Source: Eubacteriaceae bacterium
Lineage (GTDB): Bacteria; Bacillota; Clostridia; Lachnospirales; Lachnospiraceae
Length of the DNA stretch: 17,002 nt
Reading direction: 5' to 3'
Assembly: GCA_902362455.1 (NCBI GenBank)
Contig: CABIWJ010000016.1
Coordinates: 1-17,002 of the forward strand
Below are positions 1-17,002 of the stretch, one piece after another. Made by a program: the position numbers and the translations under genes. Numbering within the stretch: position 1 is the stretch's first letter; each line of letters starts with the position of its first letter. Under the pieces are notes generated by a model that worked only from the letters and a program-made list of their open reading frames with translations, was not told where the DNA came from and did no database searches.

Positions 1-86
1 CATTTTTGCTTAGTGTTCATATCAATATATTCATCACTAACATTTTCAGGCGATAATTCTTTAACTTCCGGTGCTGTTTTTTCTAT
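1..86. repeat. 86-bp terminal direct repeat, left copy
   Basis: Identical base for base to 16917-17002, the last 86 bases of the window. Both copies lie in the Ig-like coding sequence and are read in the same frame (they encode TAPEVKELSPENVSDEYID plus MNTKQKWIK). The match extends exactly to both window ends, as expected for an overlap of contig ends. Confidence 0.95.
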
Positions 87-2500: not shown

Positions 2501-3820
2501 TTAGTTATCATATTCTGCTATAACATCATATTCTCCATCTTCATCTAATGTAATAGTTATACTGATTAAGCGATTATTACCATCTACTTTACTTGTTGTA
2601 TTGCAACCATCTGAAAATGCATTCTCTAAATATGTCACAAAACTGTCCTCTCCTCCATAAGATTCGAATATAATTGCTCCATTATCTTTTATATAATATC
2701 TGGCCGGTTCTCCAACATACTCTACAACCGCCTCATTACCTCCATCCATAACTGCCTCTGTTATACAATTCTTAACAGTTTTTACTACTTCATCCAAATT
2801 CTTTGAATCTTCTTCTTTGGTTGCCTCTAAATCAAATTCTTCAGAATCATCATCTTCTTCATATGTTGAATCGTCATTCTCAGAATCTATTGAAATCAGA
2901 TACCATGAATCATTAATTTCAAACATTGTGAACCAATACTGCTCCGTTTCACCAGAATTATCATCTTTAGTTCTATAGGAAATATCTGCCTGTACTCTTT
3001 TAGCTGCGGTTATATGTACAGCTTTGCCATATTCCTCTTTATACATTTGGTTAATCTCTTTGATTGAATATCCAATATCATTTTCTTGTTTAATTATCTT
3101 ATATGTAAAAGTAATATCATCATCATCTGAAATATCTTCATCAAAGCCTTCTTTAAATTCTGTAATAAAATCTTCCATGAATTCTTTAATTTCTTCTTTA
3201 GACGAACTCTCTGTCCACTCTTTTATTTCATCAATAGCTTCTTTGGGCATAAGTGATAACAACTTTTCTGTATCTTTATCATTAACTGATTGAATAAACT
3301 CTTTAACGACATCATTAGAACTTCTGCTTTTATTTTTATTTACCAATAACATTGTCACAGCTATTCCTGATACTATAATAAGTAACATTACCAGACTTAT
3401 TATTACTCCAGTAATTAATCGTTTCTTCTTTCTATTAGGCGAAGCTGTTTTCTTGTTTTTCTTATTTGTCTTATTGTTAATATCGTTTTGTACTGTATAT
3501 GGCTGATTATTATAATACTGTTCACCATATGTGTTAGTACTTATATTACTTTGTTGTCCCGTATAGTATTGATTTACATATTGACTATTTTCATAGTTAT
3601 TTCTATTATTCTCATATCCAGTATATGGTTGATTTAGCCTTTGCTGACCTCCATACATATTTCCATTTGAATTATTCTCATATCCCGAATATGACTGATT
3701 TGAATATTGAGTGTTTCCATATGAATTATTATTCACATAATTTTCTTCCATGGTACTTCCACACCTTGGACAAAACGGTGTTCCGGCACTTACTTCTGCA
3801 CCACATTTTCTACATAACAT
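2501..3820 (-). CDS. Zinc-ribbon single-pass membrane protein with an N/Q/Y-rich linker
   Basis: 439 residues. The start at 3820 has a perfect AGGAGG 8 nt upstream. Residues 3-20 form a four-cysteine zinc ribbon (CRKC, then CPRC; Cys3, 6, 17, 20), common at the N terminus of Clostridial membrane proteins. Residues 25-117 are low complexity, very rich in Asn, Gln, Tyr and Gly, with repeated NQPYTGYENN-like words. A basic stretch (about 118-134) precedes one membrane helix (about 135-160), so the zinc ribbon and linker should be cytoplasmic. The outer part begins with a helical SNDVVKEFIQSVNDKDTEKL stretch like the opening of NTF2-like/DUF4878-type domains, followed by an acidic region and a C-terminal beta-rich segment. 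Function unknown. It lies 25 nt after the small ETT protein and 38 nt before the Ig-like gene, so it belongs to the operon and may support the surface protein. Confidence 0.85.
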   Translation of the reverse strand: MLCRKCGAEVSAGTPFCPRCGSTMEENYVNNNSYGNTQYSNQSYSGYENNSNGNMYGGQQRLNQPYTGYENNRNNYENSQYVNQYYTGQQSNISTNTYGEQYYNNQPYTVQNDINNKTNKKNKKTASPNRKKKRLITGVIISLVMLLIIVSGIAVTMLLVNKNKSRSSNDVVKEFIQSVNDKDTEKLLSLMPKEAIDEIKEWTESSSKEEIKEFMEDFITEFKEGFDEDISDDDDITFTYKIIKQENDIGYSIKEINQMYKEEYGKAVHITAAKRVQADISYRTKDDNSGETEQYWFTMFEINDSWYLISIDSENDDSTYEEDDDSEEFDLEATKEEDSKNLDEVVKTVKNCITEAVMDGGNEAVVEYVGEPARYYIKDNGAIIFESYGGEDSFVTYLENAFSDGCNTTSKVDGNNRLISITITLDEDGEYDVIAEYDN

Positions 3821-3845: not shown

Positions 3846-4355
3846 TTAAATGACTATATCCGTATTTATATACACTATATCTCTGATTATAATAAATTCA
3901 TTTGGCATAATATCAGTCTTCTGATATGAATTAACTATTGAGCCGGAGACTACATTGTAAATAGGCCTAACATTATTATTACTATTCAATAATGTGGTTT
4001 CCTCCGTATACAATAAGGTTGTCTCATCATTTGATAATACAGTGGTTTCCTCTATATTATTTTGTGTGATTTTTGAAGTCGGTATTTTACTGGTAATTGG
4101 GACACCACCAATTTTAGATGTCCTGCCCAGTTTTCTTCCTGTATCCTGTGTAATATTTCCAGACGATACATCACTTGTATACGAATTATGTTCATTTATT
4201 TCTTTAATTGCCTTTTTCCTTGATATACCTGTGATGTAGCCAAATACCCGGTTAATCTTTAGTGTAAAAAATAAAATAACAGCGATTACAAGAAAAACTA
4301 CGGCACATATATATCCTATCTGTGAAATCAATCTATATTTATCAACAATATTCAT
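3846..4355 (-). CDS. Small membrane protein with three ETT(V/L)L motifs
   Basis: 169 residues; family not recognised. One membrane helix lies at about residues 13-33, with a basic segment (INRVFGYITGISRKK) after it, so the rest is probably cytoplasmic. Residues 102-125 hold three copies of an 8-residue unit: ETTVL at 103-107, ETTLL at 111-115 and ETTLL at 119-123. The C terminus (MPNEFIIIRDIVYINTDIVI) looks like paired beta strands. The ATG comes 2 nt after the kinase stop codon, and its GGAGG ribosome site lies inside the last codons of the kinase gene, so translation of the two is probably coupled. ETTVL is also found twice next to the FHA domain of the 8676-6958 product. Threonines in ETT motifs are known phosphoacceptors in the mycobacterial FHA protein GarA. 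I infer that this protein is a membrane-bound kinase substrate or FHA docking site. Confidence 0.8.
   Translation of the reverse strand: MNIVDKYRLISQIGYICAVVFLVIAVILFFTLKINRVFGYITGISRKKAIKEINEHNSYTSDVSSGNITQDTGRKLGRTSKIGGVPITSKIPTSKITQNNIEETTVLSNDETTLLYTEETTLLNSNNNVRPIYNVVSGSIVNSYQKTDIMPNEFIIIRDIVYINTDIVI
3981..4052 (-). repeat. Triplet of (D/E)ETT(V/L)L 8-residue units
   Basis: Three consecutive 24-bp in-frame units encode EETTVLSN, DETTLLYT and EETTLLNS. The glutamates are spaced exactly eight residues apart (103, 111, 119). The regular spacing and the matching motif in the FHA protein suggest selected phosphorylation or docking sites, not random low complexity. Confidence 0.7.
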
Positions 4356-4357
4356 AA

Positions 4358-6013
4358 TTAATCCTCCATATAGACTGTATCAATTTTTCTATTGACATAT
4401 TCAAGTCTTGACTCTATATATTTTTTTATCTGTACAATATCTTCCGTCTTATCATCCTGAACACTTCCACTGATAATTTCAACATTATCTAAACAGATAT
4501 TCATCTGATCCTTAGTTACACCATCAGTTTTAAATTCATCTGTATATCCCTCTATTGCATTTAATATCATTTTGCATGAATTAAGTTTAAGATTGTCATT
4601 GACTCCTTTATTCAATATAGCTTCAATTAACTTATCTATGTTTTTCCAATATTCCATATATTCGCCTCTATCAGTAGACTCCGTAATGGAATTCTGAATG
4701 TTTCTTCTGAAATTCGCCATATTGTAAAATATTTCTGCCAAGTCTTTATTACTATCTCTTTTAGACACCTTTCCAAAATAAGTGCATACTGCATCAAATC
4801 TGGAATTATCTTCCTCCATTGTCTCATCGCAATAGTACCAATATAGAATTCCGATGTTATAACATACATCACTGTATCCCAGTTCATCACTTTTTAATGA
4901 CTTCCCATATGTAAGCATAACCTCTTCAATTTCATTCATTTCGGTTCTGGAAAATATTTTGTCATCCTTATATATTTTATTGATTAACTCAAGGTATGCC
5001 TCCTTATCTCCCGGTTTAATCTTTATCGCATCTATATATAAATCGTGTTTTTCATCCATTGTAGAACTTTCTGCCCGCTCTAAAACCGAATCATATTGTT
5101 CTTCTGTTTTGGCAAGTACCAGTTTATTTCCTGTGATACCTGTTGCTACTCCGGCTAAGGATAAACATACCATTGAAGAGAAAGCAATCATCTTTCTCCA
5201 CTGTTTTTTTCTATATTTTTTATCACTCTCATCGCAATGTTCTAAATCATACATTAATTCAGCACAATTCTGATATCTCTTATCTGCATCATGTTCGGTA
5301 CATTTTCTGATAATCTGTTCTAATCCCTCTGACAGCATCATATTACTTGCCCTTATTCCCTGTGCAAACCCACTAACTGTAGGATAATTTCCCGTAACTA
5401 AATGATACAATGTAGCACCAAGACTATATATATCTGTTCTTGCATCTGACTCACTTGTCTTTTCATACTGTTCCGGTGCTGCATATCCGACCGTACCAAG
5501 AGCAATTGTATCTTCCATCTTCATTCCCTTGAATTCTCTTACAGTTCCAAAGTCGAACAATTCAACATTGCCATCTGGTTTACGCATTATATTTGCCGGT
5601 TTCATATCTCTGTAAATTATGTTTTTCTTATGTAAATATCCAAGCACATCGCATAACTGTTTTCCCCATTTAATAACCAGTTCCTGAGGCTGGGCGCCAT
5701 ACTCATCTAACAGTTTTTTCAGTGTAACTCCTTCGATATAATCCATAACTATCAGATAATTATCTTCATTTTCTATAACATCTATAATTTCCGGCATATT
5801 AGGATGTCGACAGTTTTTGAGCAGATTAATCTCAGCTTTAATACCTATACTATTTATAGAAGCATCATTCTGACTATCTTTTCTTACTTCTTTGATTGCC
5901 CATGATTTATTAACACTTTCATTCATAGCCAGATATACAACACTCATACCACCTTTACCTATCTGGTTAAGAATCTTATATTTTCCGTCAATGACTTCAC
6001 CAATCTTTAACAT
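4358..6013 (-). CDS. Transmembrane Ser/Thr protein kinase (Hanks type) with TPR-like outer domain
   Basis: 551 residues. The kinase domain spans about residues 10-260: Gly loop GKGGMSVVY (19-27), ATP-binding Lys41 in AIKEV, helix C Glu61, catalytic loop YRDMKPAN with Asp136, Lys138 and Asn141, metal-binding DFG (154-156), and APE (179-181). All catalytic residues are present. The usual HRD is YRD, an accepted variant that keeps the Arg. Thr169 and Thr174 in the activation segment are candidate autophosphorylation sites. One membrane helix lies at about 275-295. The outer part (about 300-551) is helical and TPR-like, without PASTA repeats, so it is not a PrkC/StkP-type peptidoglycan sensor. 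The start at 6013 has GAGG 5 nt upstream, supplied by the end of an intergenic repeat. The PP2C phosphatase gene lies immediately upstream and an ETT-motif protein immediately downstream. Confidence 0.95.
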   Translation of the reverse strand: MLKIGEVIDGKYKILNQIGKGGMSVVYLAMNESVNKSWAIKEVRKDSQNDASINSIGIKAEINLLKNCRHPNMPEIIDVIENEDNYLIVMDYIEGVTLKKLLDEYGAQPQELVIKWGKQLCDVLGYLHKKNIIYRDMKPANIMRKPDGNVELFDFGTVREFKGMKMEDTIALGTVGYAAPEQYEKTSESDARTDIYSLGATLYHLVTGNYPTVSGFAQGIRASNMMLSEGLEQIIRKCTEHDADKRYQNCAELMYDLEHCDESDKKYRKKQWRKMIAFSSMVCLSLAGVATGITGNKLVLAKTEEQYDSVLERAESSTMDEKHDLYIDAIKIKPGDKEAYLELINKIYKDDKIFSRTEMNEIEEVMLTYGKSLKSDELGYSDVCYNIGILYWYYCDETMEEDNSRFDAVCTYFGKVSKRDSNKDLAEIFYNMANFRRNIQNSITESTDRGEYMEYWKNIDKLIEAILNKGVNDNLKLNSCKMILNAIEGYTDEFKTDGVTKDQMNICLDNVEIISGSVQDDKTEDIVQIKKYIESRLEYVNRKIDTVYMED

Positions 6014-6178: not shown

Positions 6179-6946
6179 CTAATATGTTCTTATAAATGCT
6201 ACAGAAATATTATCTTTTTCATTTCTAAGCTTATTCATCTCTATTAATGTAGTTCCATTCCGACTCATTATTTCTTCGTTTGTTGAAACCTCCGGTCCAA
6301 GGTAAGCATATATCTCTTCCGGTAAAATAACGTGTCTAAAACCATCTGAGCAGAACATATATACTGTATCCTTTTGCACCTCACCAAAGAACATATCAGG
6401 AATGACAACCTGAGAAGCACCTATGCATTGCAGAAGTATACTTTTTCTAGGATCGTTATCTGCCTGTTCTCTTGTAAGTAATCCTTTTCTGAATTCACTT
6501 TCAACAAGTGTCTGATCTTCAGTAATAACCTTTACTGCACCTTTTAACTCATATGCTCTGGAATCACCCACGTTCATAATGTAATATCTTGTGTCTGTAA
6601 ATAATCCGACACATAATGTGGTTCCAATTGCTATTCCATTTCTTCCACCATATTCACTTAAACGTCTGTTTTCAATAGCAACTATTTTCTCCCATTCACT
6701 TCTGATTACTCCATCAGATAATCCATTTTTAACAAGTGCAGGCAAAGTATTATAAAACCAACCTGAAAATGCATTTACTACGTCTGCACTTGCAACTTCT
6801 CCGAGTGCTAATCCACCCATTCCATCACACATAACAACCATAGCAATATTTCCTATTACAGTTTTAGCAACCTTTATTGTGACACTATCCTGATTAGTTT
6901 CTTTATGAATACCTACATCTGTACATGCAGCCACTAAATATTCCAT
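6179..6946 (-). CDS. PP2C-family Ser/Thr protein phosphatase
   Basis: 255 residues, the normal length of a bacterial single-domain PP2C (PrpC/Stp type), soluble and cytoplasmic. The metal-binding and catalytic motifs are in order: KETNQDS (Asp20), VMCDGMGG (Asp41, Gly42), GTT (108-110), NVGDSRAY (Asp128), CSDG (Asp201) and EKDNIS (Asp245), so it should be active and Mn/Mg dependent. It removes phosphate from Ser/Thr residues and is expected to oppose the kinase encoded next. The start at 6946 has GGAGGC 4 nt upstream. The gene begins 11 nt after the FHA gene stop, so the two are probably co-translated. A palindromic repeat separates it from the kinase gene. Family and motif assignment are firm; the identity of the substrates is inferred from context. 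Confidence 0.95.
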   Translation of the reverse strand: MEYLVAACTDVGIHKETNQDSVTIKVAKTVIGNIAMVVMCDGMGGLALGEVASADVVNAFSGWFYNTLPALVKNGLSDGVIRSEWEKIVAIENRRLSEYGGRNGIAIGTTLCVGLFTDTRYYIMNVGDSRAYELKGAVKVITEDQTLVESEFRKGLLTREQADNDPRKSILLQCIGASQVVIPDMFFGEVQKDTVYMFCSDGFRHVILPEEIYAYLGPEVSTNEEIMSRNGTTLIEMNKLRNEKDNISVAFIRTY

Positions 6947-6957
6947 TCAAGCCTCCA

Positions 6958-8676
6958 TTACATTACGCTAAAGATAAATTCTTCATCAGCAAGTTTTATC
7001 TTACAATCATTACTGATACTTACTTCAGTGTTAGGTGTTATTAATTTTCCGTTAATATATGTATGATTTTTAGAATTCGTATCTACGATATAATATTCAT
7101 TATTATGATTGATAATATATGCGTGACTACGGCTAATTGCTGTGTTATCAGCAATAAAATAATCTACAAAACTTTTTTCTTTACCAATAAGGAATTTCTC
7201 CTTTGTAATTGGTATGCGTTCTCCATTTTTCTCTCTTATTAAATATGCCTGCTTTATATTTTCAGGATTATTAGGATTCATACTTGCATTTAACACAGTT
7301 GTCTCTCCACTATACGCATTTCCTAATACAGTTGTTTCTCCAAAACCTGGCATATTATTCTGTGGTACATTACCCATTCCCATATTATATTGAGCCATAT
7401 TATTAAATGAATTATTGCCCATTCCATTAGAATTAGGTATTGAATTATTTAACATATTATTAGATATCGTTCCATTAACCGACATATTATTTGAATGAAT
7501 TGCCTGATTATAATTCAGCTTTACATTTGTATTCTGAGCATTTTGGTTTGGCACATTCATATTTTTATTATTTTTCTCAGACTTACCACCAAATAATTTA
7601 CTTTTCTTTTTCTCTTTCTTATTGGCTTTCTCATTTTTCTTAGACATTGCAGTCTGACCAGGCATCTGGTTTCCTACCGGCTGATTCTGTCCCGGTACCT
7701 GCATCTGGTTTCTTCCTGCTATCTGACTCTGTCCCGGCACCTGCATCTGGTTTCTTCCTGCTGCCTGTGGCTGTCCTGACATCTGCATCTGATTTCTTCC
7801 TACCGCCTGACTCTGTCCTGGCACCTGCATCTGGTTTCTTCCTGCCGCCTGACTCTGTCCCGGCACCTGCATCTGGTTTCTTCCCGCCACCTGACTCTGT
7901 CCCGGCATTACCATCTGATTTCTTCCTGTCTGCTCTGATTTATTAGGTATATATGAAATGTCATTATTTGTCATACCTGATGCAGCAAATGTATCAACTA
8001 TTGTCTTTACATTATCATCCTCTATAGAATTTCCCTGTTTCATCTTATAATCGGCTGCTTGTCCGGCTGACATATTATTTAAGCCTGATTGTACATAACC
8101 TTCTTCTTTAACTGAATCATTCTTTAACCCGGCTATTTGATGAAGATAATCGTAGAAACCTACCAATGAAAATGATGCTGAATTAAGATAACTTATTATC
8201 TGAGCCACATATTCACAATTCTCTGTCGCATCATACTTAGAAATCAATATAAGGTTCTTAAAAAACATACTATAATCTACTTTTTTCGTTTCCATCTTAA
8301 GTGGCAGATAAATCATACCAACCTCATATGAACTTAAATCAACATATATCTTTTCCATATCTAGAACAAAACAATCCTGTTCAAGCAGGTATTCATCGGC
8401 TGAAATAAGTGTTCTTATTGTATTTGTAAGTACTGAAATAATTACTTTCTTTGTTACATTTCTCTCTAGTAACTGCTGTAATGTAATCTTTGATGTAATA
8501 TTATATTTCAATAAACGTAATGAATTATTCTGTGTATAAATCATTTTTAATAATCCCGGAATATTAGAATTCTGCTGAATCATTTCTATCGCAACCATAT
8601 CTGCTGCTTCATTTTCTTTTAACTCATAAATCAAGTTTGTATTTATATCATTATTTTCAACCTTAAATTCCTGCAT
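6958..8676 (-). CDS. DUF6382-like N-terminal domain + disordered linker + C-terminal FHA domain
   Basis: 572 residues, no signal peptide or membrane helix. Residues 1 to about 180 are folded and resemble the domain I know as DUF6382 from Clostridial FHA proteins (from memory). Residues 190-470 are low complexity: six 14-residue GRNQM units (251-334), a Lys-rich patch (345-372), then Asn/Met/Gly-rich sequence. ETTVL occurs at 447-451 and 458-462, just before the FHA domain (about 480-572). FHA signatures are present: IGK (497-499, where many FHA domains have GR), SRSHA (515-519) and NHTYING (537-543), giving the phosphothreonine-binding Ser515, Arg516, His518 and Asn542. The start has AAAGGA 9 nt upstream, 18 nt after the WG gene. 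The order FHA, phosphatase, kinase suggests it is the phosphothreonine reader. The ETTVL sites could be bound by its own FHA, as in GarA, or in trans. Confidence 0.9.
   Translation of the reverse strand: MQEFKVENNDINTNLIYELKENEAADMVAIEMIQQNSNIPGLLKMIYTQNNSLRLLKYNITSKITLQQLLERNVTKKVIISVLTNTIRTLISADEYLLEQDCFVLDMEKIYVDLSSYEVGMIYLPLKMETKKVDYSMFFKNLILISKYDATENCEYVAQIISYLNSASFSLVGFYDYLHQIAGLKNDSVKEEGYVQSGLNNMSAGQAADYKMKQGNSIEDDNVKTIVDTFAASGMTNNDISYIPNKSEQTGRNQMVMPGQSQVAGRNQMQVPGQSQAAGRNQMQVPGQSQAVGRNQMQMSGQPQAAGRNQMQVPGQSQIAGRNQMQVPGQNQPVGNQMPGQTAMSKKNEKANKKEKKKSKLFGGKSEKNNKNMNVPNQNAQNTNVKLNYNQAIHSNNMSVNGTISNNMLNNSIPNSNGMGNNSFNNMAQYNMGMGNVPQNNMPGFGETTVLGNAYSGETTVLNASMNPNNPENIKQAYLIREKNGERIPITKEKFLIGKEKSFVDYFIADNTAISRSHAYIINHNNEYYIVDTNSKNHTYINGKLITPNTEVSISNDCKIKLADEEFIFSVM
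7291..7338 (-). repeat. Two GETTVL motifs in front of the FHA domain
   Basis: Residues 447-462 of the FHA protein contain ETTVL twice, 11 residues apart, in an otherwise Asn/Met-rich linker. The same pentapeptide occurs in the 169-residue membrane protein of the same operon. By analogy with the N-terminal ETT motif of GarA, these are candidate kinase sites that the adjacent FHA could bind; this is inference. Confidence 0.6.
7675..7926 (-). repeat. Coding minisatellite, six 42-bp units (GRNQMQVPGQSQAA-like)
   Basis: Six in-frame 42-bp units encode 14-residue repeats starting GRNQM at residues 251, 265, 279, 293, 307 and 321 of the FHA protein; a shortened VGNQMPGQ follows. The units differ at only a few codons (for example MVMPGQ and MQMSGQ), which implies recent expansion. 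The segment is predicted disordered, rich in Gln, Pro and Gly. It creates a long open frame on the opposite strand that is not a gene. Confidence 0.9.
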
Positions 8677-8694: not shown

Positions 8695-10065
8695 TTATCT
8701 GTATAATTTTATTAACTGCCAACTATCTCCTGCCAGAACATAAGCACTGCCACTTGATGAGAAATTCTTAGCACCATCAAACTGCTGCTCTATTACCACT
8801 TTTCCATTCTTATCTATATATCCCCATTTTCCATCTATGTTTACTGCTGCCAGGCCATTAGAAAATGAACCTGCATCTACGAACTGTGGCTTTATAACCA
8901 TTTTGCCTTTAGCATCTGCAAAACCCCATTTTCCATCTTTCATAACTGCCAAATATTCATCCTGAGACATTAATCTGACATCTTCATATTCATCTGAACC
9001 GATTTTATTCTCGTTATTGTCCATAAGATAGAATGTGTCATTTTTCTTAACTGCATATATTCCTGAACGTGAAGCATAGCCAAGCTCATCTGTCTTAATC
9101 TCTTTATATACATTTTTACTGCATTTCTTACCTTTATTGTCTATCAGATAATAACCTGTCTCATCTTTAACCATTGCTTTGCCATTATTAAATGCATAAG
9201 CCTCTTCATATTCTCCAAACTGCTTTACAAAAGATGAATTAGTGTAACAATATTTACCGTTTATCTTCGTTGGTAATAATCCCTCTGAATATGTACCTAT
9301 TTCTTCTATCTGTGTTCCCTCCGGTAATTCTGCTACGTCAACTGCCTCACCTGTCTTATCAATGAACCAATATTTATTTCCATCAGTGGTCATAGGTGTA
9401 CTGTCTGAATCAATATAAGGTGATAACTGCATATATACACACGATAACATTACCGTGCCATCAGAATAGACAATTCCATATTTGCCATCTTTATCTGTTA
9501 CCCTGCACATATTATTGTAGAATTCATCTACTTCTACATAGCTGCTATATGCATACTCAAACTTATATTTCAATTCATTTTCTACTTTAGTCATATATTC
9601 CGAAGTAACCTTTCTACTTTTAGCAGCATTTATTACTTCCATACAATTACTGTAATTTCCTTTATCATAATAATATTTTAATGACATATCATAGCCTTTG
9701 TTAGAATACTTATGGTTATCAATAATTTCCTCTACCATATCCTCATATGCATAATATTTACCCCATGCGTAGTACATATCAGCAATCTCACATTGTAAAT
9801 CCAATGAATTATTCATCTCTTTCGCTGCTGTATAATAGGCATTTGCCCTTTTATATAACTGCTTGTCCTCAAAATAATGTGCATATTCTATATACTGATT
9901 ATATTGCTTTTCTTTCTTAGCACTTTCATTGAATAAGTAATACCAGCTTATAGCGAACATAACCACTACGCCTAAAGCAATTAGTAGTCTGTTTCTCTTA
10001 TTATTAGCATTACTATTTTCCTGAACATTCTCTGTTTCATTCTCAATATTCTTCTTTTTCTTCAT
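8695..10065 (-). CDS. Single-pass membrane protein with TPR-like and WG-repeat outer domain
   Basis: 456 residues. A charged cytoplasmic N terminus (about 1-25) leads into one membrane helix (about 26-46). Residues 50-170 are helical with TPR-like periodicity (YFEDKQLYKRANAYYTAAKE). From about 188 to the end lie WG repeats, short beta units of the type DGKWGF/Y-x-D-x-x-GK-x-V-I. The clearest are DGKWGFADAKGKMVI and DGKWGYIDKNGKVVI near the C terminus; about four earlier ones are degenerate. WG repeats are thought to form ligand- or protein-binding beta structures; the ligand here is unknown. The start has an AGGTGA-type site that overlaps the stop codon of the peptidase gene, with a 10-nt gap, so the genes are translationally linked. 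The outward domain suggests an envelope or sensing role alongside the kinase. Confidence 0.9.
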   Translation of the reverse strand: MKKKKNIENETENVQENSNANNKRNRLLIALGVVVMFAISWYYLFNESAKKEKQYNQYIEYAHYFEDKQLYKRANAYYTAAKEMNNSLDLQCEIADMYYAWGKYYAYEDMVEEIIDNHKYSNKGYDMSLKYYYDKGNYSNCMEVINAAKSRKVTSEYMTKVENELKYKFEYAYSSYVEVDEFYNNMCRVTDKDGKYGIVYSDGTVMLSCVYMQLSPYIDSDSTPMTTDGNKYWFIDKTGEAVDVAELPEGTQIEEIGTYSEGLLPTKINGKYCYTNSSFVKQFGEYEEAYAFNNGKAMVKDETGYYLIDNKGKKCSKNVYKEIKTDELGYASRSGIYAVKKNDTFYLMDNNENKIGSDEYEDVRLMSQDEYLAVMKDGKWGFADAKGKMVIKPQFVDAGSFSNGLAAVNIDGKWGYIDKNGKVVIEQQFDGAKNFSSSGSAYVLAGDSWQLIKLYR

Positions 10066-10075
10066 CTGTCATCAC

Positions 10076-10726
10076 CTACATTCCCGTAAGAATTACCGAT
10101 ACATATGTACCTAATAGAATAAATGGTGCAAATGGAATAGTATCCTTCTTACTCTTTTCTTTCTTAACTAATAAATATATTGAAGCTATCATTGATAACA
10201 CTAACGACATAAAAATGGCACTGAATGAGCTTGCAAAACCAAAATATAAAATCATAATAAACATAAGTTTTATATCCCCCATTCCAAAACCGTTCTTTAT
10301 AATAAATATTCCAATAATCGCCATAAGTAATACCAATACAAAGCCAAGTCCCATTGATTTTAAATTAATAACTGCCTGTCTGCTGTCTAATATAAATTCA
10401 GCTATTAACATAATGACTCTTATTCCAAGACTTATAAGTATTACTTTATTCTCGATTATTTTCTTCTTATAATCTATGGCTGCTACAGGTACGAGAATAA
10501 TTAACATTATCAATAATCTTATATTATCTATGAGCCTGTTCGAATATCTAATATCCAGAACACAGTCCAGAATTATTAGAAACACACCTGAAATCAGAAA
10601 ATAAATTATGTGTTTCTTATTTGCTTTCGTAAATGCCTTTTTATCCTTAAATTTGCTATAGTTCTCATATATAAAGCCTATGAATGTTCCTATAACTGTT
10701 AGTATTATGAGTATTGCCAGATTCAT
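10076..10726 (-). CDS. A24-family prepilin peptidase (TadV/CpaA-like)
   Basis: 216 residues from the preferred start. It is a multi-pass membrane aspartic protease that cuts prepilin leader peptides at the cytoplasmic face. The two catalytic aspartates are visible in AAIDYKKKIIENK (the IDxxxxxIPN-type site) and in GFGMGDIKL (the GxGD site). The C-terminal IPFAPFILLG matches the conserved (I/V)PFGP segment. It lacks the N-terminal cysteine-rich methylase domain of classical PilD and so resembles the short Tad/Flp-type enzymes. An in-frame ATG at 10738 would add four residues, but it has only a weak ribosome site. The ATG at 10726 has GAGG 6 nt upstream, within that upstream ATGAGG, so I prefer 10726. 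It sits directly after a TadE-like gene whose product has a cleavable leader, its likely substrate. Confidence 0.92.
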   Translation of the reverse strand: MNLAILIILTVIGTFIGFIYENYSKFKDKKAFTKANKKHIIYFLISGVFLIILDCVLDIRYSNRLIDNIRLLIMLIILVPVAAIDYKKKIIENKVILISLGIRVIMLIAEFILDSRQAVINLKSMGLGFVLVLLMAIIGIFIIKNGFGMGDIKLMFIMILYFGFASSFSAIFMSLVLSMIASIYLLVKKEKSKKDTIPFAPFILLGTYVSVILTGM

Positions 10727-10728
10727 AT

Positions 10729-10849
10729 TAAACCTCATTTCTTAGCTACTTATTGTGAAGAGGCGATGAGAAATTCGCATAGGCGATTTCTCATCTGCCT
10801 GTGAAAAATAATCGCATCAGCATTATTTTTCACACTAAACCGCATTTCT
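10729..10849 (-). repeat. Intergenic palindromic repeat element, copy 2
   Basis: This element occupies the gap between the TadE-like and peptidase genes. A perfect 13-bp hairpin has arms 10800-10812 and 10822-10834 around the loop CGCATCAGC. A second hairpin has 10-bp arms at 10765-10774 and 10786-10795. Both are shared with copy 1 (6014-6167). The ends are a near-perfect direct repeat, TAAACC(T/G)CATTTCT (10729-10742 and 10836-10849, 13 of 14 identical). On the minus strand the element ends in AGAAATGAGGTTTA, which supplies the ribosome site of the peptidase gene. Confidence 0.75.
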
Positions 10850-10852
10850 ATT

Positions 10853-12247
10853 TCATGTATCTTCCTGCAATGCACAACCATATGATGATGTCAATTTAAC
10901 TGTAACTCCATGTGTCTTACAGTCCTTTATGATTTCTTCATACAGTTCCTTTACTCCCTCGTCCTGCGGAATGACAAGGTCAAGTATATAACTCTTATTC
11001 TTACCACTATCGTAAGTTACCTTTTCAGTTCCTCCGTCTCCAATTCTCTTTATGGTAACCTTACTCTGATTCTCACATGAGCTTACAATTCCCGATGTCA
11101 GCTTTTCTATCTGATTCTTTATATACTTCTTAGTTTCCTCCGACTTAAGTGTTTCTAAATTAACCTCTCCATACAGCGGATTAGATGAAGATATCATTAC
11201 AAATGTGTTCGTTTCTGAATTGTATAACTGTGCATATGTAGAACCTGATAAATTTTCATATCCTTGTGTTTTATAATCACTAATTCCCATATTTCTGATT
11301 AATTTATTAATTTCAGTCGGATCTGTTCCATTCCATACTGAATCGGTATTAGTATATTGTGTAGGTGTACTTTCATCTTTAACTGTTGATTTACCACTAC
11401 TTTCATCAACCTTCAATACCTGACCATCGCCATGCAGCCAGCCTTTAGTACTTGCTTTCTGTTTAACGGAATATTCTAAATTAACCGGTAATAATGGAAT
11501 TATCTTTATCTTATATTCAGCTACAATTGTTATCTCATCTGAACCATATGGAAATAATGTAGAATGTGAGAAATCTATACCATTTATATATGATGTCTTA
11601 CCGAATCTTGAACCCGGTACTATTCTCATTCCCTGTAATATCTGTTCTAAATCTTCATTGCTCTGACCTTTAGAGGTCATAAGATGTTTCTTCATCATTC
11701 CTCTGGCTAATGGATCCACAATAAGTTGTGACTTAAATATCTCTAGTCCCTCGCTCATTATCAATTGCCCGATTCCAAAGATGAATTTCTTAGGGTCTTC
11801 TGCAATAGTCGAAACTGTTTCTTTAAGATTATCTATCTGCTCTTTAGACTGATCAGCATTACTCTTAACACTATCGTACATAGTCTGCACTGAAGCTGCT
11901 ATACTGCTTAAATCAGAAGTATCTGTATTAGCTACTGCACCTTTCATATCCTTTCCCACATTCTGTGTGGCTTCATATAATGATGCTATATTGCTAATGG
12001 TATTATTAACATCTTCTTTTTTAGTATTCGCATTTTCCTGAAGTTGACCTACACTTTTATCAAGCCCTGTAACTCCAATAATATATGAATACTGTGAAAA
12101 TTCTTTCGCTGTATTATTCAATGCTTCAGCCACCTTAGCCTGTGTAATACATACTGTCAGCAAATCATAAAGCATCATAAAAAAGAACATAAATGCTGTT
12201 AAAGTCAATGTTGCCTCTACAGTTATTACTCCTTGATTCTTCTTCAT
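10853..12247 (-). CDS. TadE-like pseudopilin with a long outer domain
   Basis: 464 residues. The N terminus, MKKNQGVITVEATLTLTAF, is a type IV/Tad-type prepilin leader: a short basic leader ending in Gly6, then a hydrophobic helix (to about residue 35) with Glu at position +5 after the predicted cut. The A24 peptidase encoded next is the obvious processing enzyme. After the helix, residues about 65-155 are rich in Asn, Gln, Lys and Asp with heptad-like spacing, so a coiled coil is likely. A mixed domain follows to the end. TadE proteins are normally about 130-200 residues, so this is a much enlarged member of the group. The start has GGAGGTG 7 nt upstream, and the gene lies 62 nt after the lipoprotein gene. 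It is likely anchored at the cell surface as a minor pilin or pseudopilin. Family assignment rests on the N terminus; the role of the C-terminal region is unknown. Confidence 0.8.
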   Translation of the reverse strand: MKKNQGVITVEATLTLTAFMFFFMMLYDLLTVCITQAKVAEALNNTAKEFSQYSYIIGVTGLDKSVGQLQENANTKKEDVNNTISNIASLYEATQNVGKDMKGAVANTDTSDLSSIAASVQTMYDSVKSNADQSKEQIDNLKETVSTIAEDPKKFIFGIGQLIMSEGLEIFKSQLIVDPLARGMMKKHLMTSKGQSNEDLEQILQGMRIVPGSRFGKTSYINGIDFSHSTLFPYGSDEITIVAEYKIKIIPLLPVNLEYSVKQKASTKGWLHGDGQVLKVDESSGKSTVKDESTPTQYTNTDSVWNGTDPTEINKLIRNMGISDYKTQGYENLSGSTYAQLYNSETNTFVMISSSNPLYGEVNLETLKSEETKKYIKNQIEKLTSGIVSSCENQSKVTIKRIGDGGTEKVTYDSGKNKSYILDLVIPQDEGVKELYEEIIKDCKTHGVTVKLTSSYGCALQEDT

Positions 12248-12309
12248 TTAAGCACCTCCATGTATGCCCGGATATTTTGCATAAATTATTTATCACTATC
12301 TATGCCTGC

Positions 12310-12999
12310 TTATTCCTCTATTGTTATTGTGTCTATTGATTTATCCATTATTTCCTTTATCTGTGATTTTACTTCTTCAAGATTATAGGCACTCTCATCT
12401 ACCTGTGTTAACTGTTCTGAACTGAAACCGATATACTGATATGAATGTTTATTCCCATTAAAGCAGAAACAATAAAACCATATTGGATCACTTCCCTCTT
12501 TCTCTAATGTCCCCTCATATTTAATTCCCTCTATTCCATTCTTAGTTGTATAATTCTCCTGCTTCTCTATGTTATATGTTCTTTCCTCTACATCCCCATA
12601 TATAATATCCATTCCCAAATCTTCTCTATGCTTCTCAATAATCTCACCTAATTCATATTTATCATCAAGATTTGTTGACATTGCAAAAAACATCTTTTCT
12701 GAATCGTTTATTTCACTTAATGTATTACTATAATTATGCATATATGGTAAATAATAATTAACCTCTGCCTTATAATATTTTCCCAAATCCGAATCATCTT
12801 TATTACTTTTATCAACAGTTTTATCTTTCTCTGTTTCATCCGTATCTTCTGTTTCTTCATCCTTATCTGAATGTGTAGTGGTTACTTTAGTATCTTTCCC
12901 ACTATCCTTATTGCCACTATCTTTCTTATTTCCACATCCTGTACATATCATTGCCATTATTCCTGCTGTTAATAGTGCTATTGTTAATTTCTTCTTCAT
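12310..12999 (-). CDS. Predicted lipoprotein of unknown function
   Basis: 229 residues. The N terminus MKKKLTIALLTAGIMAMICTGCG is a lipoprotein signal peptide; the probable lipidated residue is Cys22 in ICTGC, a slightly non-standard lipobox. Residues 24-72 are a highly charged Lys/Asp/Glu/Thr-rich spacer. The folded part (about 73-229) contains several aromatic beta segments (IWFYCFCFNGNKHSYQYIGF) and a helical end. I do not recognise the family. The start has AAAGGAG 10 nt upstream. It is the first gene after the promoter at 13204-13176 and precedes the TadE-like gene by 62 nt, so it probably opens the operon and works at the outer face of the membrane. Confidence 0.85.
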   Translation of the reverse strand: MKKKLTIALLTAGIMAMICTGCGNKKDSGNKDSGKDTKVTTTHSDKDEETEDTDETEKDKTVDKSNKDDSDLGKYYKAEVNYYLPYMHNYSNTLSEINDSEKMFFAMSTNLDDKYELGEIIEKHREDLGMDIIYGDVEERTYNIEKQENYTTKNGIEGIKYEGTLEKEGSDPIWFYCFCFNGNKHSYQYIGFSSEQLTQVDESAYNLEEVKSQIKEIMDKSIDTITIEE

Positions 13000-13175
13000 T
13001 TCTTTTATTCTCCTTTATCCACTATGATTATTTTGTTTACTCACCAATATTAAAATTATTGGCCCATTATGTTATTCTATTACTCTCTTTGACCTCAACT
13101 CCTTTATTTATTATTTTATTTTAGAAGATAATTAACATTATAACTAATTTTCATAACTCCTAAAACTTATCCAGC

Positions 13176-13204
13176 ATATTAACATTTATACATAATTATG
13201 TCAA
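13176..13204 (-). promoter_or_regulatory. Sigma-A-type promoter for the lipoprotein-led operon
   Basis: On the minus strand a perfect TTGACA (-35, 13204-13199) is followed by a 17-nt spacer and TAATAT (-10, 13181-13176). A TG one base before the -10 makes it an extended -10. Transcription would begin near 13169, leaving about 170 nt of untranslated leader before the lipoprotein ATG at 12999. It lies directly downstream of the terminator of the preceding gene, the expected place for a new transcription unit. Confidence 0.6.
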
Positions 13205-13212
13205 TTTTTTTC

Positions 13213-13264
13213 AAAAAAGAAAAGTAAATTTACTTTATGCCTAAGAAATTTACTTTTCCTTTTT
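13213..13264 (-). terminator. Intrinsic terminator after the surface-protein gene
   Basis: An inverted repeat with 19-nt arms (13213-13231 and 13246-13264) and a 14-nt loop. On the minus strand all 19 positions pair, one as G-U; on the plus strand that pair would be A-C, so it fits minus-strand transcription better. The 3' arm ends in a run of U broken by one C. It lies about 110 nt after the stop codon at 13373 and just before the promoter at 13204. The stem is AT-rich, so its strength is uncertain. Confidence 0.65.
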
Positions 13265-13372
13265 GGTATACTGAATATAAATATTATATATTGCTCATAT
13301 TTTTATTCATATTCTGTAAATTATTTAACTTGGATTTATTATTCCATTGGTAATTTATAGACTTATTGAATT

Positions 13373-16300
13373 TTATTTATTCTTTTCAGTCTTTTTTTCG
13401 GTAATTTTAGTTGAATTCTTGTTTGATTTTCTAATTATCATAAGAATAATTAATACGATAATTGCAACTACAGCACAGCTTATTCCTATAACAAGTGGTT
13501 TATTGTTAATAAATCTAATCCATAAATTGGTTGTTATATAGAAGCCCTTTATCTCTGTCTCGCTTTCATTACCTGATTTATCAATGCACTTAATTATTAA
13601 ATTCTGAGATTTATTTGATGATGGGATTGTTATCTTTAAGGTTCCATCTTCTGACATATTTTTCTTTATGTCATCTCCCTCCAATTTCATAATCTCTTTA
13701 CCATTTAATAACACAATTACTGACTCTGCCTCGATATTATCCGTAACCTTGAATCTGATGTCTTTACTATCTGCAACATACACATTTCCTTTTTTTAATT
13801 CAAAAATTGTGCATACCGGTGGTTCATTATCTATAACAAATGAAAACTTTTCAGAAATAGCATCATTTTCAACAGAATCTTTTGAAGCAATTGTTACATG
13901 ATAAATACCATTTTCCTCAAAATTATCTTTACTTATTATATATCTGTATTTACACCATGTGTCTATTCCTTCTACTTTTTCTATAGTATAATCTTTACCT
14001 TCTACTAAATCCCATGTGGTATTTCCTCTATATACTGTTATCTTAATGGTATCTGCTGAAAGTTCATTTACATTTATTTCATTAAATATAATATCTTGTG
14101 GATTAATTAAATATTTATCCTTTATATTTAATGTTTCTTCATCATCTATATAATATGTTGGACCATTTCTGTTAATTGAAAATAATACATTATTTTCTGT
14201 GACTCTACCTGCTTTATCAGATGCCTTACATACTAATCTGTAGATACCATCTGATTCAAGATTTGCTACACTAAGCCTTCTTCCATTTTCTATATTCTGA
14301 TAATCAATACGAACATTTGCTTTCTCTTCATTATTGCTTATTAAGTTTGTAGTACTTCCGTCTTTATTTAGTAAATCCAAGGATATACTTAGACTTTCAA
14401 AATATGTATCAGCCGAAGAAATATTAAAACCAACTACATTGTCTCTGTAAGCTCTTTCGTTATCCACTCCTGATATAATAACCTCAGGTGCTTTTTTATC
14501 TATATAGAACGCAGTATTATATGCATTTTCAATTGTATTACCTGCCATATCAGTATAATTTGCCATAATACTATATAATGCCTCTTCATCTAATGCAATA
14601 GATGCTGTATGTGTATCACCATTATTTATCCAGTTTATATTCTGCTGTACTGCTGCATTATTTCTATTAATCAGCAATTCAAAACGTGATGCATCAAAAT
14701 TATGTTCAATAATTGTAAATGTTGCAACTCTCTGATCAAGATAATAATTTCCATTTACTGCTGAATTATTATTAAACTGAACTGATAATGCTGGTCTTGT
14801 TTTATCAATTGTAAACTCTGTTGGCTCTACTGTTCCTGATACAAAATTAATATTTGCAATATTATCAGCATTATCCTGATATCGCATAGCAAATGTATAA
14901 TCACCATCATTTACATACGAGAGGCTTGCTGTATATGTTGTATTATCTCCATTTCCTGTTCCATTTGCCACACTCCAGTCACTTATAATCGGCACTATAC
15001 CATCAGTATTTTTAATATCAATAACAACATTCTTAGGATTAAAATTTCTTTCTTTAATAGAAATTATTGCTTTTCTATCCGATTTAAACATCTTTCCATT
15101 AGTAGCATCTGGTATATTATTATCATACGAAATGCTAATTTCGGGTGCTGTCTTATCTATGCTGAAAGTATCTGTTGCATATGAAATATTACCTGCTCTA
15201 TCTTCTACCCTTATATTAACCGTTATTCTGTTGTCATTATTTCTTACTGCAATAGCTTTAGAAATTGCTGTAATAAGGTTCTTATCAGTAGAAATTACAT
15301 TATAATTATCACCATTTATTTTTCCTGAATTATCAATATCAATTCTTCCTGAATAATTGTTTTCTTCACCATTAGCTGATGTGACTTCCCATTCAATACT
15401 TCTGATACCCGATGTTACATCTTTAATATTAAATACAACAGGAATATCTTTATTATAAAGGTCTAGTCCTGAATTATCCTTATATGCTGTCTTAGGTCTG
15501 TTTATGGTAATTATATCTTTATCATTTCTGTTATCATCTATTACAATAGCATCTGGTTTTACATAGCTGCTTGCTTTTGTCAAATCACCATTACCTACAT
15601 TATCAACAGCTGCAACATAAATCTGTCCCCTAAATGCTTCTGGTATCTGAATGGTTATTTCATTATTTGTTGGTGTAACAATTATTTTGTTCTTTATTGC
15701 ATCTGAAACTTTTTCTCCATTTTTACATAAGAAATATCCAACTTTACTTATTCCTGAAGATGTACCGTCATCGGCTAATGTAACTGTTACTTTTGTAGTA
15801 TGCTTAAAATAGTATCCATACTTATCATCTGTAACTGGTAATGAATTTCCTTCAATATATTTGTCAGATTTCATAGTGAATTTTGTAGCCTTTGGTGTAT
15901 TAGAATCATAATATACCGTATATGTTTCCTGCTTATGATTGCCGGCATTATCACTCATTTCTATTACTATGGTATACTTTCCATCTTTAGCTGCTATAGG
16001 GCTTAATTCAAATGTACCATCAATATCATTTACAACACCTTTAGCAAAATTAAGGTTACCATTCTGTTTTGGAGTAACTTTCTCTTGTTTATCTTCATAC
16101 TTTACATATATTTCGTATGATGCAATTCCTGATATTTCATCTTTAATCGCATAATTATATGTTACTTTACCTTTTATCCATTTTTGCTTAGTGTTCATAT
16201 CAATATATTCATCACTAATATTTTTAGGTGACAATTTAGTAACTTCCGGTGCTGTTTTTTCTATTAACAGACCATTTTCTGATAACAGTATATATCCGCT

Positions 16301-17002
16301 ATCATTTCCTACGTTATCATATACTTTTGCATAGAAATATTTATATTCTTTATTAGTATCAGCTATTTCAAATGTAACTTTTCCGTCTGATAACTTTACA
16401 TCATTATCATTTATCTTACAAATATCTGAAATTTCGGTTTCAGAATCATCTAATATTTCCTTAACCGCGTATACCTCTACATTTCTAATTCCTGATGATG
16501 GTATAATGTCATTCACACTGAATTCAACCTTTACTGTACCCTTTGCAAACATTTTTCCATCAACTATTTTTACATTTTTAAATTCAGGCTTATTTTCTTC
16601 TGTTATTATAACTTCAGGATTATCTAAATCTGCATTTACTACATATGTATATGCCTTATCTTCATTAGAATTTCCTGCATTATCAATAGTTTCAATTATT
16701 ATTGTATATTCGCCTGATTTATCCGGAACCAATTCAAATGTACCACTAACATTTTCTACTACACTGTTAACAAAATCAAGGTTACCATTCTGCGTTGGAA
16801 TAATTTCTTTTTTAACTTCTTCTTTACCATTTTTATACTGTACATATATTTTATATGAGGATATACCTGCTTCAGTATCTTCAATTGAATAATTATATGT
16901 TACTTTACCTTTTATCCATTTTTGCTTAGTGTTCATATCAATATATTCATCACTAACATTTTCAGGCGATAATTCTTTAACTTCCGGTGCTGTTTTTTCT
17001 AT
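13373..17002 (-). CDS. Giant Ig-like repeat surface protein, C-terminal part (runs off the right edge)
   Basis: The frame is open for 22 codons beyond the Met codon at 16936, up to the last base, so the true start is outside; 1209 residues are visible. It holds about ten Ig-like modules with the markers SGI near the start and D-N-A-G-N/D-x-x-G-N near the end. The first 246 residues from MNTKQKWIKGKVTYNY form a unit whose opening is repeated 738 bp later. Near the C terminus is one membrane helix (PLVIGISCAVVAIIVLIILMI) and then a Lys/Glu/Asn-rich tail of about 20 residues; there is no LPXTG motif, so it is membrane-anchored rather than sortase-anchored. The terminator at 13213-13264 follows. 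Module sequences are closely related to those in 1-2462, where VEVYA, LLSEN and IEKTAPEV recur. Joined through the shared 86 bp, the two parts give one in-frame protein of 2001 residues. Confidence 0.88.
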   Translation of the reverse strand: MEKTAPEVKELSPENVSDEYIDMNTKQKWIKGKVTYNYSIEDTEAGISSYKIYVQYKNGKEEVKKEIIPTQNGNLDFVNSVVENVSGTFELVPDKSGEYTIIIETIDNAGNSNEDKAYTYVVNADLDNPEVIITEENKPEFKNVKIVDGKMFAKGTVKVEFSVNDIIPSSGIRNVEVYAVKEILDDSETEISDICKINDNDVKLSDGKVTFEIADTNKEYKYFYAKVYDNVGNDSGYILLSENGLLIEKTAPEVTKLSPKNISDEYIDMNTKQKWIKGKVTYNYAIKDEISGIASYEIYVKYEDKQEKVTPKQNGNLNFAKGVVNDIDGTFELSPIAAKDGKYTIVIEMSDNAGNHKQETYTVYYDSNTPKATKFTMKSDKYIEGNSLPVTDDKYGYYFKHTTKVTVTLADDGTSSGISKVGYFLCKNGEKVSDAIKNKIIVTPTNNEITIQIPEAFRGQIYVAAVDNVGNGDLTKASSYVKPDAIVIDDNRNDKDIITINRPKTAYKDNSGLDLYNKDIPVVFNIKDVTSGIRSIEWEVTSANGEENNYSGRIDIDNSGKINGDNYNVISTDKNLITAISKAIAVRNNDNRITVNIRVEDRAGNISYATDTFSIDKTAPEISISYDNNIPDATNGKMFKSDRKAIISIKERNFNPKNVVIDIKNTDGIVPIISDWSVANGTGNGDNTTYTASLSYVNDGDYTFAMRYQDNADNIANINFVSGTVEPTEFTIDKTRPALSVQFNNNSAVNGNYYLDQRVATFTIIEHNFDASRFELLINRNNAAVQQNINWINNGDTHTASIALDEEALYSIMANYTDMAGNTIENAYNTAFYIDKKAPEVIISGVDNERAYRDNVVGFNISSADTYFESLSISLDLLNKDGSTTNLISNNEEKANVRIDYQNIENGRRLSVANLESDGIYRLVCKASDKAGRVTENNVLFSINRNGPTYYIDDEETLNIKDKYLINPQDIIFNEINVNELSADTIKITVYRGNTTWDLVEGKDYTIEKVEGIDTWCKYRYIISKDNFEENGIYHVTIASKDSVENDAISEKFSFVIDNEPPVCTIFELKKGNVYVADSKDIRFKVTDNIEAESVIVLLNGKEIMKLEGDDIKKNMSEDGTLKITIPSSNKSQNLIIKCIDKSGNESETEIKGFYITTNLWIRFINNKPLVIGISCAVVAIIVLIILMIIRKSNKNSTKITEKKTEKNK
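16179..16264. repeat. Internal diverged copy of the 86-bp repeat
   Basis: 79 of 86 bases match the terminal repeat; the differences cluster in the middle. It lies 738 bp (246 codons) from the right terminal copy and encodes TAPEVTKLSPKNISDEYID plus MNTKQKWIK. The similarity continues to lower coordinates into GKVTYNY. It marks a duplicated module boundary inside the Ig-like gene. Confidence 0.9.
16917..17002. repeat. 86-bp terminal direct repeat, right copy
   Basis: Identical to bases 1-86. Overlapping the two would close the window into a 16,916-bp circle. The sequence context on the inner sides differs (module start here, module end at the left copy), so this is not simply a longer repeat cut at random. 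Confidence 0.95.

What the first reader, a model, noticed from the sequence alone, without database searches (positions are those of the whole stretch)
16917..17002. Window ends are an identical 86-bp direct repeat: circular, tandem or falsely closed molecule
Bases 1-86 and 16917-17002 are identical and the match reaches both ends, whereas the internal related copy at 16179 has already diverged (79/86). Overlapping the ends gives a 16,916-bp circle in which the two surface-gene fragments fuse in frame (2462 + 3544 = 6006 nt, 2001 residues plus stop), with signal peptide at one end and membrane anchor at the other. There is no replication, partition, mobilisation, integrase or phage gene, so a plasmid is unlikely. 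A tandem amplification of the segment, an excised circle formed by recombination within the Ig-like repeat, or an assembly closed wrongly on a repeat between two paralogous genes are the remaining options.
Basis: partly seen in the sequence, partly recalled or inferred. Interest (0 to 1): 0.7.

Follow-up and report, generated by a model that had tools for sequence, protein, structure and literature searches.

The report
Head-to-tail half of pilus locus
A 17-kb piece of DNA from an unidentified bacterium reads as one turn of a loop or tandem array that carries half of a pilus locus and one giant surface-protein gene, which suggests that this bacterium varies the number of copies of its surface genes.

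Summary
In detail: bases 1-86 equal 16917-17002, the longest end overlap. The ends belong together: 17 protein clusters hold the surface gene whole (2,000-2,001 aa), so closure between two different paralogues is refuted. Longest contigs of 13 of these 17 are 16,161-17,054 bp, against 2 of 100 further clusters listed: a recurring unit-length molecule or graph component.

The genes match the distal half of a Lachnospiraceae Tad/Flp pilus locus (TadE-like, TadV, WG, DUF6382-FHA, PP2C, kinase, p169, giant Ig protein); relative G021 continues upstream into TadZ/A/B/C-type genes. Here the surface gene's end runs into a lipoprotein and the TadE-like gene instead. The unusual joint is therefore near 13.0-13.4 kb; the 86-bp end only marks an assembly break at an intragenic Ig repeat.

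Repeat R2 has two forms: 12 of 12 clusters with the window's form are unit-length; of 8 with the R1-like form 6 sit on longer contigs (without partial and deleted clusters, 4 of 5, p 0.002).

Best reading: a head-to-tail unit, most likely a chromosomal tandem array; a free circle remains open. No same-species genome, other contig or read was seen.

The parts
1..86 (-). R (end copy 1): terminal direct repeat, the R1 Ig-like repeat inside the surface gene
   Evidence: identical to 16917-17002
16917..17002 (-). R (end copy 2): terminal direct repeat; 17002 is the exact upstream boundary of the R1/R2 homology
16179..16264 (-). R2: second Ig-like repeat copy in the same gene (TKLSPKNIS form), 79/86 to R1
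3..2462 (-). N-terminal part (820 codons) of the 2001-aa surface protein, start at 2462
   Evidence: ORF; joined to the C-part in P0001-P0017; no Pfam match
13373..17002 (-). C-terminal part (1209 residues in the open frame) of the same surface protein; Big_13 Ig-like domain, C-terminal membrane anchor and basic tail (by eye)
2501..3820 (-). zinc-ribbon membrane protein, 439 aa
   Evidence: Zn_Ribbon_1; 3 homologous clusters found
3846..4355 (-). p169, small protein with kin in the same place in relatives' loci
4358..6013 (-). Ser/Thr protein kinase, 551 aa
   Evidence: Pkinase 1.3e-48
6179..6946 (-). PP2C-type phosphatase, 255 aa
   Evidence: PP2C_2; Stp1 family below cut-off
6958..8676 (-). 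DUF6382-FHA protein, 572 aa, with a 42-bp tandem repeat in its linker (7671-7928)
8695..10065 (-). WG-repeat protein, 456 aa
   Evidence: WG_beta_rep 2.3e-33
10076..10738 (-). TadV-like prepilin peptidase, 220 aa
   Evidence: Peptidase_A24
10853..12247 (-). second TadE-like pseudopilin, 464 aa (no Pfam TadE call; 37-39% to the gene in the same place in G021 and G112, which Pfam does not call either in G021)
12310..12999 (-). lipoprotein, 229 aa, first gene after the unusual joint
   Evidence: ORF; lipo_SP0191 match below cut-off
13000..13372 (-). joint between surface-gene 3' end and lipoprotein: the adjacency not seen in six relatives' loci
13212..13265 (-). terminator-like hairpin with U-run after the surface gene
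   Evidence: -21.4 kcal/mol, z -6.1; not in the consensus list
13176..13204 (-). promoter-like TTGACA-17-TAATAT (10 of 12) upstream of the lipoprotein
   Evidence: such sites are no more frequent than in shuffles (97 found, 114 expected)

Best explanation
The window is one turn of a real head-to-tail unit of about 16.9 kb. The unit is the distal half of a Lachnospiraceae Tad/Flp pilus locus: lipoprotein, TadE-like, TadV, WG, DUF6382-FHA, PP2C, kinase, p169, zinc-ribbon and giant Ig-like surface protein, all on one strand. The surface gene's 3' end is followed by a terminator-like hairpin, a promoter-like site and the lipoprotein. SHOWN: the two window ends belong to one intact gene; contigs of unit length recur in the cluster table. 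INFERRED: the unit is most likely a chromosomal tandem duplication or array, kept and changed in copy number by homologous recombination, which raises the dose of the surface protein and its kinase/phosphatase/FHA regulators; free circles could be a by-product. The contig ends inside the Ig repeat because that repeat branches the assembly graph, not because the molecule was joined there.
For: P0001-P0017 (17 of 17) are intact 2,000-2,001-aa proteins joining the window's N- and C-parts, 98-100% identical over the C-part. Longest contigs of 13 of these 17 are 16,161-17,054 bp, versus 2 of the 100 further listed clusters P0021-P0120 (Fisher 4e-12). P0002 (one residue shorter than the window's protein) has 17,054 = 16,913 + 141, i.e. 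the window's circle less 3 bases plus a usual k-mer length (my arithmetic; 141 as a usual k is recalled; other indels unknown). Relatives G021, G112, G143, G278 keep the order TadE-like, TadV, WG, FHA, PP2C, kinase, surface gene, and G283 and G729 have it rearranged; in none of these six is the surface gene followed by kin of the 229-aa lipoprotein or by the TadE-like gene. TadZ, T2SSE, two T2SSF (just below cut-off) and TadE lie upstream in G021. Four full-length pairs (P0005/P0003, P0009/P0007, P0016/P0012, P0017/P0015) differ only at the same 4 residues of R2; the R1-like members lie on contigs of 242,561, 92,125, 16,264 and 177,060 bp, the others on unit-length ones, so the same gene is found both on long, probably chromosomal, contigs and in the unit. 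Unequal recombination at R1/R2 is seen in P0020, which lacks one unit. No replication gene.
Against: No contig other than the window was seen as DNA; contig lengths come from a table and show neither topology nor copy number. Tables for two other genes of the unit do not repeat the pattern: the 99% PP2C cluster P0121 has a longest contig of 3,825 bp and the 97% zinc-ribbon cluster P0241 15,904 bp. 15 of the 17 surface clusters carry no source label, so the number of independent samples is unknown. No read depth. The DNA flanking the long-contig copies was not seen, so an array border is not shown. Stable 17-kb arrays in many samples would be unusual. The R2 difference could be an assembly effect. 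In G283 a small (117-aa) lipoprotein-like ORF does follow the surface gene, so a lipoprotein in that place alone is not special. No same-species genome was found (best PP2C identity 55%).
Confidence: 0.5

Rival explanations
1. A free extrachromosomal circle of about 16-17 kb, either excised from the chromosome or kept as a plasmid-like element by host replication functions, exchanging its surface gene with a chromosomal copy.
For: Recurrent unit-length contigs; the k-mer graph of the window taken as a circle closes without repeats at all 13 tested k from 69 to 141. A PP2C relative at 85% also has a longest contig of 16,637 bp, but 4 of all 120 listed PP2C clusters fall in that size range, so this is weak.
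Against: No replication, partition or mobilisation gene; no near match in 72,556 plasmid records or 50,697 phage records, and none in viral contigs; most of the genes belong to a chromosomal locus in relatives; the surface genes of unit and long contigs are the same within a strain background apart from R2, so the unit does not evolve as a separate lineage.
Confidence: 0.25
2. A chromosomal locus in which only the surface gene is duplicated, one copy before and one after the operon; the assembler loops the two copies into an apparent circle.
For: Would also give an intact gene and a closed graph; two forms of the gene (R2) exist in the same backgrounds.
Against: Needs two copies of a 6-kb gene identical except for R2; ordinary assembly would then be expected to break at the gene borders and not give unit-length contigs holding the intact gene (inference); the window's form of R2 was never on a contig above 17,054 bp (0 of 12 clusters), whereas a resolved long contig would carry both copies.
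Confidence: 0.2
3. False closure: the two ends belong to two different surface genes that share 86 bp.
For: The end is on a repeat boundary.
Against: 17 of 17 clusters P0001-P0017 hold the N-part and C-part in one intact protein.
Confidence: 0.03

Closest known systems
Tad/Flp pilus loci of Lachnospiraceae chromosomes (seen here in G021, G112, G143, G278)
   Same: Same gene order from the TadE-like gene to the giant surface gene, about 27-54% identity by gene
   Different: The window lacks the TadZ, TadA, TadB, TadC, first TadE and DUF5702 genes that G021 has upstream, has a zinc-ribbon gene of its own, and its surface gene runs into the lipoprotein and TadE-like genes
Recombination-driven tandem gene amplification (review PMC11721125, seen as search listing with start of abstract)
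   Same: Head-to-tail copies of a chromosomal segment that change gene dose
   Different: Described there for antibiotic resistance; here a recurrent unit without drug genes, in what looks like one species
IS26 translocatable units (PMC11102541, seen as search listing with start of abstract)
   Same: Circular and multimeric tandem forms of a segment
   Different: No insertion sequence or transposase found in the window
CDI-bearing element of Burkholderia thailandensis (PMC6350997, search listing with start of abstract; its circles, duplications and bounding insertion sequences are recalled)
   Same: Surface-system genes on a chromosomal segment that, as recalled, forms circles and duplications
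   Different: As recalled far larger and bounded by insertion sequences; none here
T7SSe (PMC11217815, passages seen)
   Same: DUF6382-FHA protein together with a PPM phosphatase and a kinase
   Different: No FtsK-like ATPase or WXG100 protein among the window's genes

Membership tests
plasmid | replication initiator or known replicon | tested here: not met
   no Rep family in Pfam, NCBIfam or PHROGs scans of the minus-strand genes; plus-strand ORFs of 128 aa or less not scanned; an RNA-only replicon would be missed
plasmid | covalently closed circular DNA | tested here: inconclusive
   86-bp end overlap and intact gene across it fit a circle and a tandem array alike
plasmid | kinship with known plasmids | tested here: not met
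   no near match in PLSDB; a distant search with 3,781 bases gave one WG-repeat match of 140 bases at 72%
phage or phage-plasmid | virion, integrase or lysis genes; kin among phages | tested here: not met
   PHROGs gives kinase and unknown-function matches only; no near match in INPHARED; the WG protein alone has relatives at 25-31% identity in 5 phage records
IS26-type translocatable unit | insertion sequence or transposase | tested here: not met
   none among the minus-strand genes scanned
tandem gene amplification | unit joined head to tail | tested here: met
   N- and C-parts form one intact gene; unit-length contigs; a circle would meet this too
tandem gene amplification | two or more copies in a row between chromosomal flanks | not testable with these tools
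   no reads, no depth, no long contig accessible
Tad/Flp pilus locus | TadV prepilin peptidase and TadE-like pseudopilin | tested here: met
   Peptidase_A24; TadE-like by homology to the gene in the same place in G021 and G112, not by Pfam
Tad/Flp pilus locus | TadA ATPase, TadB/TadC platform, TadZ, Flp pilin | tested here: not met
   no such gene among the window's genes; TadZ, T2SSE and two T2SSF present in relative G021 (Flp itself not checked)
T7SSe | FtsK-like ATPase and WXG100 protein | tested here: not met
   not among the window's genes

The most novel reading that the evidence does not exclude
A replication-gene-free 17-kb DNA circle carrying half of a Tad locus and a giant surface protein lives beside the chromosome in a Lachnospiraceae species and repeatedly exchanges with the chromosomal copy. 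The two states are marked by the sequence of one Ig repeat (R2): the window's form in the circle, the R1-like form in the chromosome. It would act as a dose and variation switch for the cell surface.
Probability: 0.17. Interest if true: 0.75.

Novelty: new variant of a known kind. Interest (0 to 1): 0.42.

Why it matters
If the unit is a recurrent array or circle, these bacteria vary surface-protein dose by copy number of a pilus-linked operon in nature, outside drug selection. It also warns that an end overlap on a contig does not make it a plasmid: a chromosomal locus can appear as a closed 17-kb molecule in many assemblies.

Tried and rejected
Paralogue false closure: rejected on intact proteins. 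Plasmid or phage identity: no close kin. tRNA or Rfam features as attachment sites: 0 tRNAs, 0 Rfam matches at gathering score, one chance-level miRNA match on the terminator hairpin. Same-species genome: not found in 12 genome searches (1,824 genome look-ups with repeats; nine of them with PP2C); best PP2C identity 55%.

Unit-length contigs as linear pieces broken at repeats: a k-mer simulation of the window taken as a circle gives 16,182-16,242 bp pieces for the tested k from 37 to 67, close to three observed lengths (16,161, 16,264, 16,265), but such pieces would break the surface gene, which is whole in those clusters; so not adopted. Most observed lengths (16.1-16.7 kb) are below the window's 16,916-bp circle, so they imply indels elsewhere in the unit or breaks elsewhere; not resolved.

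R2 forms as an assembly artefact (R1 sequence copied over R2): not excluded. It would explain pairs that differ only at R2, but not why the R1-like form goes with long contigs.

P0124 (PP2C, 85%, 16,637 bp) as a second lineage with the unit: weak, since 4 of 120 listed PP2C clusters fall between 16,100 and 17,100 bp.

The third protein search (zinc-ribbon protein) gave 3 clusters only and no further support from contig lengths.

Literature: nine searches ran; no title or abstract start listed reports such a unit. Of one paper, PMC11217815, passages were seen (12 of 24 places); the others were seen as listings.

Full report
Observation. The two ends of the window carry the same 86 bases and no longer overlap exists up to 3,000 bases. 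A related copy at 16179 matches 79 of 86. The open frames at the two ends read the overlap in the same frame, and the lengths add to 6,006 nt, 2,002 codons.

The ends belong together. A search of about 5.8 billion clustered proteins with the C-terminal piece gave 397 matches, 120 listed; the first 17, P0001-P0017, are all 2,000-2,001 aa and 98-100% identical over the piece. Aligned with the window's two pieces, each holds the N-part, repeat R1 and the C-part in one protein; P0003 differs from neither window piece at any position compared. The window's gene is therefore one natural gene, opened by the assembly.

Why it opens there. The gene carries an Ig-like unit twice, 738 bp apart. The window's high end is exactly the first base of the R1/R2 homology: the base just upstream differs between the copies, and 28 further bases are shared downstream. 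In 8 of the 20 clusters P0001-P0020 the second repeat has the R1 residues (P0005, P0006, P0009, P0016-P0019, and P0020, where the two repeats are fused by a deletion). In P0001, R1 itself has two residues of the other form. A sample holding such a copy would make this repeat a branch in the assembly graph. The overlap of 86 equals k-1 for k = 87 (inference).

What the unit is. The genes lie on one strand: lipoprotein, a TadE-like protein, a TadV-like prepilin peptidase, a WG-repeat protein, a DUF6382-FHA protein, PP2C, a Ser/Thr kinase, p169, a zinc-ribbon protein and the giant Ig protein. Regions of 11 relatives' genomes were fetched and seven were laid out. G021, G112, G143 and G278 keep the order TadE-like, TadV, WG, FHA, PP2C, kinase, p169, surface protein (in G143 the gene in the p169 place was not called by similarity; G278 has a further 1,114-aa gene before the surface gene). 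G283 and G729 have TadV and WG further upstream, G067 keeps only PP2C, kinase and p169. In G021 the genes further upstream are TadZ (PF21194), a T2SSE ATPase, two proteins with T2SSF matches just below Pfam's cut-off, TadE and a DUF5702 protein; ORFs of like sizes and starts stand in G143, G278, G283 and G729 (by eye), but not in the fetched part of G112. A lipoprotein stands before the TadE-like gene in G021 and G143, and six lipoprotein genes stand further upstream in G112; similarity to the window's lipoprotein is weak and confined to the first 95 residues or less in G112 and G143. In none of the six loci with a surface gene is it followed by the TadE-like gene or by a gene similar to the window's lipoprotein; in G283 an unrelated-looking 117-aa lipoprotein-like ORF follows. 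The window thus holds the distal half of this locus closed on itself, and the adjacency special to it is the 373-bp stretch 13000-13372. This stretch has a strong terminator-like hairpin (not in the consensus list) and then a promoter-like site (such sites are not more frequent than in shuffles).

Unit-length contigs. For P0001-P0017 the longest contigs are 16,431, 17,054, 16,627, 16,657, 242,561, 31,351, 16,673, 16,463, 92,125, 16,265, 16,451, 16,466, 16,495, 16,161, 16,645, 16,264 and 177,060. Thirteen of 17 lie between 16,161 and 17,054; of the other 100 listed clusters P0021-P0120, 2 lie between 16,100 and 17,100 (P0018-P0020 are left out of this count because they are partial or deleted). 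I take the column as the longest contig that carries the cluster's protein. 17,054 equals the window's circle less one codon plus 141 (arithmetic). I did not see these contigs as DNA, so their topology is not shown, and 15 of the 17 clusters carry no source label, so the number of independent samples is unknown. Two other genes of the unit do not repeat the pattern: PP2C cluster P0121 (99%, 42 members) has a longest contig of 3,825 bp and zinc-ribbon cluster P0241 (97%, 104 members) 15,904 bp.

Two forms of R2. Of 20 same-gene clusters (P0001-P0020), 12 have the window's R2 form (TKLSPKNIS) and all 12 are unit-length. Eight have the R1-like form, with longest contigs 242,561, 31,351, 92,125, 16,264, 177,060, 26,331, 9,057 and 25,459: one is unit-length, six are longer, one is shorter (Fisher 1e-4). 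Without the partial or deleted P0018-P0020 it is 12 of 12 against 1 of 5 unit-length (p 0.002). Clusters that share a background are not independent. Four full-length pairs differ in nothing but the same four residues of R2 (P0005/P0003, P0009/P0007, P0016/P0012, P0017/P0015), and so does the partial P0018 from P0003; in one of the four pairs (P0016/P0012) both members are unit-length. So the same gene, within one strain background, occurs both in the unit and on a long contig, and the form of R2 goes with the state. An array whose last copy, next to the flank, has the R1-like form, or a circle beside a chromosomal copy, would give this. A recurrent assembly artefact at R2 is not excluded.

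Related lineages. The next relatives of the surface protein (P0021 78%, P0022 67%, P0023 64%) sit on contigs of 82,596, 195,339 and 69,499 bp, and a zinc-ribbon relative at 81% on 117,666 bp, so the unit-length state may be special to the window's species. A PP2C relative at 85% with a longest contig of 16,637 bp is a possible but weak exception, as 4 of 120 listed PP2C clusters fall in that size range. P0022 and P0023 differ in length by 238 residues and appear to differ by one Ig-like unit (by eye), as P0020 lacks one unit in the window's lineage: unequal recombination inside this gene recurs.

Plasmid or phage. No replication, partition, mobilisation, integrase, transposase or virion gene among the 11 minus-strand ORFs scanned; a TrbJ match of the zinc-ribbon protein is far below cut-off, and short plus-strand ORFs were not scanned. 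No near match among 72,556 plasmid and 50,697 phage records, none in the viral-contig scans; the WG protein alone has relatives at 25-31% identity in 5 phage records. The composition profile shows no sign change of GC skew, as expected when all genes are on one strand; it does not speak for or against an origin.

Host. The 3 PP2C relatives listed with an organism name are 'Lachnospiraceae bacterium'; two distant surface-protein relatives (30-32%) are named Bacillus and Ruminococcus. Twelve genome searches (1,824 look-ups with repeats, nine of the twelve with PP2C) found no genome closer than 55% PP2C identity, so the host species is not identified; a gut habitat is only a guess from the kin.

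Judgement. Head-to-tail arrangement: likely (array, circle and duplication of the surface gene together about 0.95). Chromosomal array as the main state 0.5, free circle 0.25, duplication of the surface gene alone 0.2, paralogue false closure 0.03. Function, by inference from the genes: the unit multiplies a surface protein with the FHA/PP2C/kinase module and two pilus-maturation proteins but not the pilus motor, so copy number would change surface-protein dose and its regulation rather than the number of pilus motors.

Noticed in passing
window 6017-6154 and 10731-10830: Two intergenic palindromic elements, parts 87% and 97% alike, stand at the starts of the kinase and TadV genes; one folds with z -5.75, the other only z -1.44. 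They look like repeated extragenic palindromes; no exact copy of a 25-base core was found in the 140 loci fetched.
   Followed up: partly
window 7671-7928: 42-bp tandem repeat, about 6 copies, in the linker of the DUF6382-FHA protein; a possible source of length differences between contigs.
   Followed up: no
L122, about 8848-16393 (G112:C4), upstream of the TadE-like gene: Six lipoprotein genes of 248-254 aa in a row, with short ORFs between some of them: this side of the locus is amplified in another species too.
   Followed up: partly
P0022 and P0023: Two relatives of the surface protein whose lengths differ by 238 residues, apparently one Ig-like unit.
   Followed up: no
P0124: A PP2C relative at 85% identity has a longest contig of 16,637 bp; the unit may exist in a second lineage, but 4 of 120 listed clusters fall in that size range.
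   Followed up: partly
P0018: A cluster of 36 member sequences is represented by a surface protein that starts at an internal methionine (residue 690), longest contig 26,331 bp; contig edge or a shortened gene.
   Followed up: no
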